Made by a program: the position numbers and the translations under genes. Shown piece after piece: positions 108 to 56,300 of a stretch of DNA of 64,000 bases; position 1 is the first letter of the stretch, and each line of letters starts with the position of its first letter. The notes under the pieces are model-generated. The model made no database searches. It saw only the letters and a list, made by a program, of their open reading frames with translations, and had not been told where the DNA came from. Source of the stretch: Terfezia claveryi (Eukaryota > Ascomycota > Pezizomycetes > Pezizales > Pezizaceae); assembly GCA_015179025.1 (NCBI GenBank), contig WHUX01000046.1, forward strand, positions 186,001-250,000, given 5' to 3'.

Positions 108-768
108 TTCCCTCTACTGACGATCAACACGAAAGCAAAAGCGGCTGTCCTCTTCCTTGATTTCTCTACTACCGGTGCCTATGAAGGACATTGTTTCTGT
201 GGCTCCGCTAAGGCTTATGTCTACAGGCTGTGCCTAAAGACCCTATCTATAGCCAGCAGTCGGACAGGTAGGTGGCCTGTCCACGTTACCCTGAATCAAG
301 CACCCAAGGCAACAATCTTGTTATTCTAAACTAATGAGTAGTCTCATTGAACGAAGAATTTAAAGGGTGGGAAATGAATATAACAGAAATAGAATCAGGT
401 TAGAAGACAATGAAGACTAAAGGGTGCAGGGAATAGTACAACAGGGTATATATCCTGTAAATGTGCACGCAGCTGAAATATATCCTTTCGATGACAGCTG
501 CACCTTAATTCACGAAATATGGCCATCTCATTTACAGAGAAAAGAGCTCCGAAAAAACAACAGATCTACATACCTGTTAGTTGATGCTTCATACAATGAG
601 TGATTGGAGCCAATAGTATTTGGTGATGTCGGCAGCGCCCTTGGAGGGAGAGAAGCGACGTTTAATAGCAGGCATAAGGGAATGTCTATTACATAATATT
701 CACCACCCCACTAAGTATCTAACTCTGTGTTTGTTCCCCATTTGAAAGGCTTTTGAGTTGTTGAGATA

Positions 769-780
769 AGGGCGAGACTA
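769..780 (+). mobile_element. 12-bp insertion AGGGCGAGACTA with 9-bp flanking duplication
   Basis: The insertion is bracketed by perfect copies of GTTGAGATA at 760-768 and 781-789. It ends in AGACTA like the other members of this set. Read on the other strand it begins TAGTCTCG, as does the terminus of the 4.3-kb element at 8643-12950. Confidence 0.6.
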
Positions 781-802
781 GTTGAGATACTTGGGCCTCC
801 AG

Positions 803-817
803 GTGCCAACCAGACTA
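803..817 (+). mobile_element. 15-bp insertion GTGCCAACCAGACTA, imperfect flanks
   Basis: The same 15 bases occur as a clean insertion at 39756-39770. Here the flanks are related but diverged: CTTGGGCCTCCAG on the left (790-802) and CTTAATGCCTCCAG on the right (818-831). I read this as an older insertion or a nested event. Confidence 0.4.
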
Positions 818-845
818 CTTAATGCCTCCAGACTAGGTAGCCTCC

Positions 846-52455: not shown

Positions 52456-52872
52456 ATATAGGGCAACATATTTCTATTCTAATCACGCTCATCACTTTGA
52501 AACGCCAGGCGGTGACAAATCGTCTTCAAGATATGTTTCGACGCAGGAGAGGTGCTGGATCTCATTTTGTGTTTTTATTCAATCTCTTCTGTCGCAATGC
52601 ACCTTGACATGGACATCTTTCTTATGAATTCCTTGCTTTTTGTTTTTCCGAGCCCCGACCCACATTTTACGGGGTGTTGGTTTGTTTTGCTTTGTTTTCG
52701 GGGGGATGTCCCTGGCATACTATCTTCCGCGAAAGACATGTATACTACGTAGTATATGCTGATTTTTCCCGCCAAGTATGGTAACTACATACCTCTGTTC
52801 CTCATGCTTGACCAACTACATACAGACCCCACACTTGCACCAATAGATATGCGTGTCACAGGGGGTTTACCT

Positions 52873-52884
52873 TAGTCTCGATCA
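52873..52884 (-). mobile_element. 12-bp insertion TAGTCTCGATCA with 9-bp duplication, empty paralogous site
   Basis: GGTTTACCT flanks it at 52864-52872 and 52885-52893. The paralogous site near 42895 reads GGTGGTATGCCTTTATGATA with a single copy and no insert. Confidence 0.7.
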
Positions 52885-53385
52885 GGTTTACCTTTATGAT
52901 AACACAGACTGTGGCAAGCCCTATGGGACATGTTGTCGATAGCCTTCTCTACCAGTACTTCACCACTAAGCGGACCACCAACAACTCCCTATGTACAGAA
53001 CACAACAAGAGGTTTATGCATATCATTGGCAAAACAAGCATATCACGTGACTAACAAGAATTAGCGGTCTTGGGACCAACAATATTCACCAGTGTTATTT
53101 TTACAAGATGCCTGTTCTCGGCCCCAAACACTGCCAATTTATTTATCTCACTACTGTAGTAACCTCGGTCTTTTAGAACTGGATCTCTTGGAATACTAGT
53201 TTATATTTGCAATCTTGGAATACGTTATCTTACCCAATGCATGGTATCTAGGTAGGAGTAGTAGGTGCTAATGCTTATGTTGAGTGAAGGTTTTGTAGTC
53301 CTTTTCCCCCCACCCCACACAGATCGATCTGAAGGAAACAGCTGGCTCCTTGCTTGTCTATTCGCACCCTCGAAAGCCGCCTAGG

Positions 53386-56300
53386 ACCTGGTCTCCCCTT
53401 CCGGGTGGCTTTGGGGGCTGCTCGTGCGGATAGGCCGTTTTCTGTTGCTGAGCCTTTTATTTGGCATAGATGTGATTTGAAACGCACTCGATCCCTGGCT
53501 AATTTAACTGATTGGCGTATGATGTTCAATCTCGTTTCGTACATTGCTCCCACTTTGTGTTCCATTGCATGCTTTAATCAAACGTTGTATCTAAGTACTA
53601 TATATCAAAAATTCACTTACTTGGGTAATTGTGTGCTTCTGTGTTCTCCCACGGGGCCCAGGTCCCCGCGAGACAACTAACCGTTCCCAGGCCTGTCGCG
53701 AATATTGACTTCTCGTGGGGGTACGGCAATGGAACACCTAACAAGAATATGGTGAGGAAATCTTCAGCACAGGCTACAAGAAAGAGAGTAAACACAAGGC
53801 AAGACAATGTCTGCATACGAAACGAGGTTATTTATTTTTTAAATAATCTGCCAGATCCACCCTCGCAAACTGAACTCGATAAAGCAAATACATAAAAACA
53901 AATGATAAGCTCAACGGCCTATTGGCCAGCGACATTCGTGAACAAAAGAAACGAAGCCAAAACCAGACTTAAAAGGGATCGAGGCTTAACTGGCGGTACC
54001 AGATGACCACGAGGGTATAAAAAGTCACGAACTCGGTTTGGATATGACACTTATTGTATTGCTCGCGTGTATTACTATGTTCATGAAAGGAAAAGAGATA
54101 GATGGAAAATGGGGCTTTTATATACCCGAAAAACTCATGATAGCCCTTCCAAGAACAGGATACCGGAACACTCCTCCGCTCATTCAAATGTAGACTGGCC
54201 CCATTCAAATAATGACCGCCCCACTCGTCAGCCGGCCATGATTACCACTTTCAACAGAGGGGCCTGACTGGGATTTGTCCATAATCGAAAAACATCAAAC
54301 AGACTCAAGTACCCTATGACAATTCAATAGGATAGAACAGAAATGAACAGAAATATGAGAGTGAAACAACGATGACTAAAAACCGCTTGACGTGCTACTT
54401 TGCTTCCTGCACACTTAAGCCCCTGGAAAACTCACCATATGTACGCCAATTTTGTACCTGGTCCTGCATACAAAATAATATTGAGCCTAGTCTCCGACAT
54501 CCGATCCTCCATTACACCGTTCAGCAGAGCCCACAGATTCTTGACAATCCTATTTTTTGGTCCCACATACTTCCCCCGTTTACTGTTGATGGGAGGGAAA
54601 TAGTACGTCAACAATGCCCTAATCTCTTGAAGCATGGTTGCAATCTGGTTCCCCTACACACTCCTCAAGGAAGAGGACTCGTCCCGGGTATATTGGTGAG
54701 ATATACCGTCGTCTTGACGGCTCCTCTGGAGAGATGGGTGAATACCGCAGAGCGAGAGGAGCTAGGGCTGCGGAGGGTGGATGGTGGGTTTTGAGGCAGG
54801 CTTGTCAATTGACTCAGGGTTGCCATTAAGAGGCCATGATTGCCAGCGGTTCCGGTTCATCACGCAGTGGCTGCTTACTGCCTCGACGTATATTTCGTTG
54901 TAAAGCGTGCTTTCTCCATTTCCCGAGTGGGCAAGGAAGATGTGTATATGGGTAGTTAGATCAGCAGCGGATGTGATAGCTTTTCCCAAACCCCACCCTA
55001 GTCTCATGCCAACCCCACCCGTGTGAACGCACTACCAAACTCACGAGATACAGTAGATGGGTCGTATTGGTTCAGCTCCCGTTCTGCTAGGTGTTCGGCT
55101 ATTTGTATCTCTATGCCGCTCCTCGGAGGTGACCTTGGATATGTTGATGGTTGTTTTCTTCTCTTTTTTTTCTTCAAATACTCAGTACTCATAGTTGATG
55201 ATCGTTTGTATGGCTGCTGAAGAGTCGCTTAAAATGGCTAGATAATGAGTAAAGAATGATATTTTATATTTTCAGTCTATAATACTCAAGTTTGCAAAGA
55301 AGTAAACTGATATGCGTACATATATGGGAAATCATGTGAATCCGAAAGTTTTTACGGTGGGCTAGGTCCAACCAGGCACTGACTACGCTAGTAGGTCTAG
55401 CGCATAATACAGGGGCAAATTTGGTGTTACATACTCCGTACCTCAGACCCATTTATGCTGAGTTCTTTCTCCTAGAGCTATCTTACCCTGTAGAGTATCA
55501 CTCTCGATACAAGCATATCGTTCGGACTGGGGAAGTACCAATATATTCTTACATCAAGAGAAAATAGGAAAATATGGCATGAAGCTAGCCATAGGAAAGG
55601 TCGCGAAAGAAGAGGATAAATACAACCAGAGCATACAAGCACCAAATAGACAAATGAGGGTAGATGCGGGGACCAGAATCTCAAGGAGCGGAGAAGGAGG
55701 AGGTTGCTCCAGAAGGCACCAGAAAGTCAGTGATCCTGTGCTAAATATGCTTACTCCTGCGTTGAATCTCCAGGGTCTCAATGCGCTTTCTCTCACGCTT
55801 GAGGACTATTTGTAGTTCATTAGTATTGGCAGTGGGTTCAGCTTGAAGTGAAAAGAGGAGTAATTTTTCAATATGTGTGAGAGCTTTTCATGAGGTGTAA
55901 CCGGAGGAGGTCAAGTGGAATTTCGTCTTCTCGCTCATCAGCTTCATTGGGAAAATAGGTTGCTAGGATCCCATTCTCAAAACCGCTGACTGGATCTTCA
56001 ACAGTTTCAGTAGCAGGATGAATGAATTGAGTTCACAATGATAGGTGGGGACCTAGGTTGTGCAGCTCGAATGCAGTCCAGGTTATCGTCCTCAATTTCT
56101 TGACTATTATCAACGCCCAGAGGAAGGGGAAAGGGTCCCATGGATCTTAACTTGACTTGCTTCAAAACAGTACGCTAATGTAGACGGTTTAACTCCAGTC
56201 TTCCAAGCATCTACATCTCATAGGATGGTATGTACCTAGTCTAGTTGTGTTTATCCTAATTCGTGTTAACTCTCCCATGTGCTTTACAGCCTCTCGCTTA

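What the first reader, a model, noticed from the sequence alone, without database searches (positions are those of the whole stretch)
760..55020. A family of 12-53-bp insertions with a fixed TAGTCT terminus and 8-11-bp target duplications
Seen directly at 769-780, 846-882, 8814-8825, 15503-15539, 26059-26111, 39756-39770, 48018-48043, 52873-52884 and 54999-55011, with weaker cases at 803-817, 12735-12754 and 20210-20223. Every insert has TAGTCT (AGACTA on the other strand) at one end, followed by C or G. The other end and length vary. Direct repeats of 8 to 11 bp flank each. Inserts this short cannot encode anything. Possible origins are residues of a transposon that leaves 12-15 bp of one end on excision, minimal derivatives still mobilised in trans, or extreme 5' truncation of a retroelement with a fixed 3' end. 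I know of no named family with this behaviour.
Basis: seen in the sequence. Interest (0 to 1): 0.88.

Follow-up and report, generated by a model that had tools for sequence, protein, structure and literature searches.

The report
Tiny one-ended transposon stubs in truffle
The genome of a desert truffle is strewn with DNA stubs about 10 to 50 bases long, most carrying one fixed transposon end inside a 9-base target duplication; they are probably scars left where larger jumping genes landed and then left again.

Summary
The window is G000:C401:186001-250000 of a 72.6-Mb assembly; one window protein is 100% identical to one of the desert truffle Terfezia claveryi. In 264 kb, TAGTCT starts 22 inserts of 7-60 bp enclosed by exact repeats of at least 9 bp, against a mean of 0.17 per hexamer (next best 4; 0 in five Markov shuffles); all 22 continue with G or C. 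Paralogous empty sites show insertion. The duplication is essentially fixed at 9 bp, not 8-11. TAGTCTGGTTGGCAC alone occurs 2,885 times, its reversal never.

Catalogued lengths are 7-15, none at 16-23, then 24-37, plus two-ended hairpins. The window holds a 4,308-bp TAGTCT-ended TIR element with a 9-bp duplication (8643-12950). Its terminal 25-mer recurs at 117 other places, its inner TIR nowhere else.

Best reading: excision scars of 9-bp-duplicating TIR transposons that leave a defined end stub. No transposase was tied to them, most stub families have no known parent, and half of 60 sampled 15-mer sites show no repeat. Insertion of ultra-short mobile units is not excluded.

The parts
8643..12950 (.). 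4,308-bp TIR element, the only long TAGTCT-ended element found in 264 kb; TIRs about 8643-8704 and 12889-12950; 9-bp target duplication CAGTACCTA at 8634-8642 and 12951-12959; no recognisable transposase
   Evidence: TIR 37 of 40 identical, alignment of 63 columns at 88.9%
769..780 (-). 12-bp stub TAGTCTCGCCCT with 9-bp repeat TATCTCAAC
846..882 (+). 37-bp stub with 8-bp repeat TAGCCTCC
8814..8825 (+). 12-bp stub TAGTCTGGTTGT with 10-bp repeat, nested inside the 4.3-kb element
15503..15539 (-). 37-bp stub with 9-bp repeat TCATCACAG
26059..26111 (+). 53-bp insert with 10-bp repeat ACCTGTAGTC
39756..39770 (-). 15-bp stub TAGTCTGGTTGGCAC with 10-bp repeat; paralogue near 49.9 kb without it (match runs only about 30 bp past the junction)
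48018..48045 (-). 28-bp stub TAGTCTGGTTGGCACAACACCCTCGTAG with 9-bp repeat; empty paralogue near 44.25 kb
52873..52884 (+). 12-bp stub TAGTCTCGATCA with 9-bp repeat GGTTTACCT; diverged paralogue near 42.9 kb without it
54999..55011 (+). 12-13-bp stub TAGTCTCATGCC(A) with 9-bp, two-letter repeat ACCCCACCC
803..817 (-). 15-bp stub TAGTCTGGTTGGCAC in a cluster; repeat CTGGAGGC displaced by 6 bp
12733..12754 (-). probable old stub TAGTCTCGACCCCGACCACTCC near the right end of the 4.3-kb element; repeat decayed

Best explanation
The short inserts are excision scars. A group of TIR DNA transposons with TAGTCT[G/C] ends, moved by a transposase that cuts its target with a 9-bp stagger, inserts and later leaves. 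On leaving, the cut lies inside one or both TIRs, so the chromosome keeps both 9-bp target copies plus a defined piece of one end: about 10-15 bp, or about 24-31 bp ending near the tip of a hairpin in the TIR. More rarely pieces of both ends stay (two-ended hairpins). Shown: the insertion, the 9-bp duplication, the fixed TAGTCT end, the length classes, and one long element whose end equals one stub family. Inferred: that a longer element once sat at each stub, the staggered internal cut (as in P elements), and the kind of transposase (MULE-like at a guess, from the 9-bp duplication).
For: (1) The duplication is essentially fixed at 9 bp, the mark of a transposase cutting both target strands. 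(2) The 4.3-kb element has TAGTCT TIRs and an exact 9-bp duplication. The 30-mer TAGTCTCGAACCCGACCGCTCCTAGGGAGG is the outermost 30 bp of its right TIR and is the whole insert in 7 of 16 catalogued stubs of this family; 8 of 16 are 30 bp long. (3) The terminal 25-mer is at 119 places including the element's own two ends; the inner TIR is only at those two ends. (4) Two-ended inserts carry the same variant at both ends in 19 of 21 distinct sequences (1 of 10,000 shuffles reaches this), as two ends of one element would. (5) A one-ended piece lacks the second end that a transposase would need to insert it with a duplication (general knowledge, no call). (6) P elements are cut 17 bp inside their repeats (PMC7776569, passages); the MULE Muta1 occasionally left up to 13 bp of TIR when the donor site had no target repeats (PMC5225508, passages).
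Against: No transposase was tied to TAGTCT ends: six reading frames of the 4.3-kb element have no Pfam match, and the two MULE copies fetched (of 21 hits) end differently. Only one long element was found in 264 kb. None of 80 sampled GGTTGGCAC sites shares more than about 54 bp from the TAGTCT end with another, so no multi-copy parent was seen behind the commonest family. Bare 9-bp tandem duplications, expected if some excisions leave nothing, are not in excess (13 at 8 bp, 10 at 9, 6 at 10). With target repeats present, Muta1 excision was about 90% precise and left no stub; in rice only 8 of 94 excisions were perfect and many lost flanking bases (PMC4423477, passages), whereas here both target copies stay intact. 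Identical two-ended inserts occur at different sites, as mobile mini-units would also give. 30 of 60 sampled 15-mer sites show no repeat or a weak one.
Confidence: 0.5

Rival explanations
1. Ultra-short mobile units: the hairpin of about 50 bp (TAGTCT...AGACTA), or even the one-ended piece, is itself what is inserted, by a transposase acting in trans, and the shorter stubs are incomplete insertions of it.
For: Identical two-ended inserts sit at different sites with different repeats (L138/L139, L133/L134). For the commonest families no longer parent was found. Lengths are defined and copy number is high (2,885 exact 15-mers). The hairpin loop reads in one orientation in 99 of the 100 listed of 126 places.
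Against: A 10-15-bp piece has no second end to be joined, and DNA this short should be too stiff for end pairing (general knowledge, no call). Two-ended places with the full 15-mer at both ends number 46, that is 92 of the 2,885 15-mers, so most copies are not complete units.
Confidence: 0.27
2. Target-primed reverse transcription of short structured RNAs that end in AGACUA: the RNA's 3' end fixes the TAGTCT junction, and the enzyme stops within the hairpin.
For: One fixed and one variable end; strong polarity of the loop (99 of 100 listed; 334 CCCTC against 25 CCCT[AGT]); a tandem start (TAGTCTGTTAGTCTGG) looks like a template jump.
Against: The duplication is essentially fixed at 9 bp, unlike the usually variable duplications of LINE-type insertion (general knowledge). 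Two-ended inserts abut the repeats exactly at both ends. The one stub family with a known longer relative matches the TIR of a DNA-type element. No Rfam family reaches its gathering score in the window.
Confidence: 0.12
3. Interrupted gap repair: after excision, one broken end copies a little of the element from the sister chromatid and is then joined to the other side. A variant of the scar reading without an internal cut.
For: It predicts a fixed outer end, a variable inner end and intact target copies; hairpins in the TIR could stop the copying (argument, no call).
Against: Exactly recurring lengths (30 bp in 8 of 16; 28 bp ending CTCGTAG; 15 bp) and the lack of enrichment above 60 bp fit a defined cut better than random copying tracts.
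Confidence: 0.08
4. Pattern-picking or tandem-repeat artefact.
For: Without a tandem filter arrays give similar signals.
Against: With the filter, 22 against a mean of 0.17 per hexamer and 0 in shuffles; empty paralogues; 2,885 against 0 for the reversed 15-mer.
Confidence: 0.01

Closest known systems
Drosophila P element excision (cut 17 bp inside 31-bp TIRs, 8-bp duplication; PMC7776569, passages read)
   Same: A cut inside the TIR can leave a defined piece of the end between intact target copies; it works like it.
   Different: Duplication 9 bp, not 8; two stub classes (7-15, 24-37); no P-type transposase found (an uninformative negative); here 2,885 copies of one 15-bp end alone.
Mutator-like elements (MULEs), e.g. 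Muta1 (PMC5225508, passages read)
   Same: 8-10-bp duplication; occasional TIR remnant of up to 13 bp (donor site without target repeats); a foldback MULE with tandem-repeat arms occurs in this genome, resembling the inverted 34-bp arrays of the 4.3-kb element.
   Different: With target repeats, Muta1 excision was about 90% precise; the two MULE copies examined here have other termini; TIRs of the 4.3-kb element are about 62 bp, not over 100.
MITEs and foldback elements
   Same: Two-ended forms are inverted-repeat elements, most of those fetched with target duplications.
   Different: Only about 25-60 bp long, and most copies have one end only.
5'-truncated LINE or SINE copies
   Same: One fixed and one variable end with target duplications.
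   Different: Essentially fixed 9-bp duplication, two-ended copies, and a DNA-type TIR relative.

Membership tests
Excision footprint of a TIR DNA transposon | both target-duplication copies retained with part of an element end between them | tested here: met
   (but 30 of 60 sampled 15-mer sites show no repeat or a weak one)
Excision footprint of a TIR DNA transposon | the retained piece equals the terminus of a longer element with the same duplication length | tested here: inconclusive
   met for the CGAACCCGAC family (4.3-kb element); no parent found for the other families in 264 kb or among 80 sampled sites
Excision footprint of a TIR DNA transposon | occupied allele with the full element at the same site in another individual | not testable with these tools
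   no second isolate held
P superfamily | 8-bp target duplication | tested here: not met
   mode 9 bp
P superfamily | P/THAP9-type transposase in the genome | tested here: inconclusive
   PF21787 no match, but no control genome rang either
Mutator-like (MULE) | target duplication of 8-10 bp, usually 9 | tested here: met
Mutator-like (MULE) | MULE transposase inside an element with these termini | tested here: not met
   4.3-kb element without match; 2 of 21 MULE hits examined have CGGACTGACT or GAGATAACAT ends; the other 19 were not examined
LINE/SINE (target-primed reverse transcription) | target duplication of variable length | tested here: not met
   essentially fixed 9 bp
MITE | inverted repeats at both ends of each copy | tested here: not met
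   46 two-ended places, holding 92 of the 2,885 15-mers

The most novel reading that the evidence does not exclude
DNA units of only 10-50 bp, most with a single recognisable transposon end, are inserted as such with a full 9-bp target duplication: a one-ended transposition that would make the smallest mobile elements I know of and has filled a fungal genome with thousands of them.
Probability: 0.27. Interest if true: 0.9.

Novelty: new variant of a known kind. Interest (0 to 1): 0.68.

Why it matters
If they are scars, each stub records one past landing and departure of a transposon. At the strict count (22 in 264 kb) that extrapolates to about 6,000 recognisable events in the genome, pieces so short that repeat annotation would be expected to miss them. 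Target choice, cut position and repair outcome could then be studied statistically from one genome. If instead the short pieces insert by themselves, the minimum for a mobile element would have to be redrawn.

Tried and rejected
Chance and tandem-repeat artefact: rejected by hexamer, shuffle and reversed-pattern controls. Retroelement with a fixed 3' end: disfavoured (essentially fixed 9-bp duplication). Concerted insertion of two separate short molecules: disfavoured by argument, since it would not give one-ended inserts with exact repeats. Independent short templates at the two ends: disfavoured, since end variants match in 19 of 21 two-ended sequences.

Looking for the parent: MULE hits (21), two fetched with flanks; neither ends in TAGTCT. 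P-type transposase PF21787: nothing found, uninformative. A search for long elements in 264 kb gave seven rows: two are the 4.3-kb element read from both strands; the other five have TIR identity of 12-17 of 40 and were taken as chance. A search with window 8840-9930 shows that this part of the 4.3-kb element is a mosaic of other repeats and whole only in the window (40 of 231 candidates scored). The 24-mer was not found in viral contigs or genome contigs. In the paper library the 15-mer was not found, and the listings (titles and abstract starts) showed nothing that describes this. Passages were read in PMC12730594, PMC7776569, PMC10983969, PMC5225508, PMC4423477 and the Terfezia MAT paper PMC13152902 (which reports no transposable elements in the MAT idiomorphs), and the abstract of PMC1978519. 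Most subscription papers are not in that library.
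Full report
Source. The window lies in G000:C401:186001-250000; G000 has 72,558,070 bases in 794 contigs. The protein of window 60622-61674 (minus strand) is 100% identical to a Terfezia claveryi protein and 83% to one of Tirmania nivea, so the host is taken to be that desert truffle.

Is it there? The cited places were read directly. For every hexamer I counted occurrences followed, after 7-60 bases, by an exact copy of the 9 bases before it, with simple and tandem repeats removed, in the window plus 200 kb of contig C1. 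TAGTCT scores 22 of 186 occurrences; the mean over hexamers is 0.17, the next hexamer has 4, and five second-order Markov shuffles give 0 for TAGTCT. A looser count (repeats of 8-14 bp) gave 32 against a mean of 0.77 for inserts under 60 bp, and no enrichment above 60 bp. Without a tandem filter the picture is blurred: TAGTCT is 18th by count, and among 100 permuted hexamers (235 of 13,083 in all) one reaches 31 of 145 against 33 of 186 for TAGTCT. The base after TAGTCT was G in 16 and C in 6 of the 22.

Insertion, not coincidence. Comparison with duplicated loci that lack the stub shows the target with one copy of the repeat. The clearest are 48018-48045 against 44.25 kb and, on C1, 65902, 152134 and 128713; C1 152612 and window 52873-52884 are more diverged. 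For 39756-39770 the paralogue near 49.9 kb matches only about 30 bp past the junction, and the alignment covers one side only.

How common. TAGTCTGGTTGGCAC occurs 2,885 times in the genome and its reversal never; extended to 24 bases, 334 times. The strict count of 22 in 264 kb extrapolates to about 6,000 recognisable inserts. Inserts are clustered, nested ones included: 4 of 20 gaps under 500 bp against 0.8 expected.

Duplication length. In 87 distinct inserts with an exact repeat of at least 8 bp the lengths are 8 (10), 9 (55), 10 (16), 11 (4), 12 (2). A true length of 9 with chance matches of the next base explains the tail. Target sequence preference is weak.

Insert lengths. None of the 87 is 16-23 bp long (one 17-bp insert with only a 7-bp repeat, L100, appears). 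Below are 7-15 (12 and 15 most frequent), above 24-37, then composite or two-ended forms. Most fetched sites were chosen by patterns of 15, 24 or 25 bases, which biases the proportions, but the gap also holds in the 25 distinct inserts of the window and C1: 7, 9, 10, 10, 12 (seven times), 14, 15, 15, 24, 28, 29, 31, 34, 34, 35, 37, 37, 45, 53. Some lengths recur exactly: TAGTCTGGTTGGCAC (15) in ten catalogued inserts, TAGTCTGGTTGGCACAACACCCTCGTAG (28) in four, TAGTCTCGAACCCGACCGCTCCTAGGGAGG (30) in seven of 16 of its family; eight of the 16 are 30 bp long.

Sampled sites. Of 20 fetched 24-mer sites (of 334), 16 had a repeat by the program, four had none. Of 60 fetched 15-mer sites (77 had been prepared), 30 had a repeat by score, against 1 when upstream flanks were swapped between sites; the other 30 have none or a weak one. 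Of 21 sites of the CGAACCCGAC family in 20 stretches, 18 had a repeat by score, one more an exact 9-bp repeat of two letters, and two none; two of the 21 (L109 plus strand, L127) look like copies of one insertion.

Polarity. After TAGTCTGGTTGGCACAACACCCT the next base is C in 334 places and not C in 25. After TAGTCTGGTTGGCACAAGCCTCT the loop reads CGTAG in 99 of the 100 listed of 126 places and ACGAG in one. So the stub is the end of something with one defined sequence there, not a symmetric hairpin read from either side.

Two-ended forms. TAGTCTGGTTGGCAC, 0-30 bases, then its reverse complement, occurs at 46 places, 42 distinct sequences. Stems are 15-25 bp, 15 being set by the pattern; in 23 of 42 the stem goes at least 2 bp further. 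In many, a longer part ending at the loop (about 23-30 nt) is followed by a shorter part of the other end; some are two inserts facing each other with a repeat copy between (C1:725085). A shorter form of 25 bp is also seen (L072). Of 20 fetched, 16 have a repeat of 8 or 9 bp, L133 has 7, and L140, L149 and L152 have none; L136 and L137 are identical over 158 bp, and L135 has the same flanks as L040. Where both ends carry a diagnostic triplet (AAC, AAG, AAT), the two agree in 19 of 21 distinct sequences; 1 of 10,000 shuffles does as well. Both ends therefore most likely come from one element. Identical two-ended inserts at different targets (L138 and L139; L133 and L134) are compatible with recurrent scars of preferred lengths or with mobile units.

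A long relative. In the window, 8643-12950 is a 4,308-bp element with TAGTCT TIRs (37 of 40 terminal bases equal) and the exact 9-bp duplication CAGTACCTA. It has no recognisable transposase; its interior holds inverted arrays of 34-bp repeats and fragments of other repeat families. The terminal 25-mer of its TIR is found at 119 places with up to two mismatches, its own two ends included, but the next part of the TIR only at those two ends. In 84 mismatch-free places the right-end variant (ACCGCTCC) is found in 82 and the left-end variant (ACTGCTCC) in two, one of which is the element itself. So one long element stands against 117 other copies of its end, of which I looked at 21.

Mechanism. 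A duplication of constant length means that both target strands were cut by one enzyme with a fixed stagger, and such enzymes join two transposon ends. Most stubs have only one. The simplest account is that a complete element went in and most of it came out again. Exact stub lengths point to a defined cut inside the TIR. In P elements the second strand is cut 17 bp inside the repeat (PMC7776569). If such an overhang on one side is kept and the one on the other side trimmed back to the edge of the target copy, the product is target copy, stub, target copy, as seen; if both are kept in part, the two-ended hairpin results. The longer stub ends near the tip of a hairpin in the TIR, so the break may be set by that hairpin. 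This last part is inference. That bare 9-bp duplications are not in excess, that Muta1 excision with target repeats was about 90% precise, that rice excisions often lose flanking bases, and that no parent was found for the commonest families speak against it. For these reasons I put the scar reading at 0.5 and keep ultra-short mobile units at 0.27.

Which transposase? The duplication of 9 bp fits MULEs. The genome has MULEs (21 hits), among them a 2,636-bp copy with a 9-bp duplication and a foldback copy of about 7.75 kb, but these two end in CGGACTGACT and GAGATAACAT. The link to TAGTCT ends is therefore a guess.

Novelty. Excision footprints are known. A genome strewn with thousands of defined-length, one-ended stubs that form a repeat class of their own did not appear in the listings, which cover open-licence papers only.

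Noticed in passing
window 44031-48268: Reverse transcriptase (RVT_1) and RNase H reading frames (44800-46521, 46561-47358) lie between inverted repeats of about 270-300 bp, an unusual setting for a LINE-like gene.
   Followed up: partly
window 10347-12507: Arrays of a 34-bp repeat in alternating orientation (arms up to 536 bp) inside the 4.3-kb element.
   Followed up: partly
window 8856-9249 and e.g. G000:C101:42963-44514: Repeat family with inverted copies about 1.2 kb apart at several places (elements of about 1.55 kb); one arm lies in the 4.3-kb element.
   Followed up: no
G000:C773, about 253,000-260,800 (L129, L131, L132): Foldback MULE of about 7.75 kb with arms of tandem repeats and GAGATAACAT ends; related repeats at window 48597-49020.
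   Followed up: partly
window 40064-42283 and 50188-52455: Two subtilase genes duplicated about 10.1 kb apart; each copy has one flanking stub (39756-39770, 52873-52884) that the other copy lacks.
   Followed up: partly
window 25941-25976: GCAACATGC, TGGCACAACCCCTCCTTT, GCAACATGC: a 9-bp repeat around an insert that looks like a stub without its first nine bases.
   Followed up: no
L031 and L091: What look like three successive stubs at the same 9-bp target, so insertions seem to recur at or beside existing stubs.
   Followed up: partly
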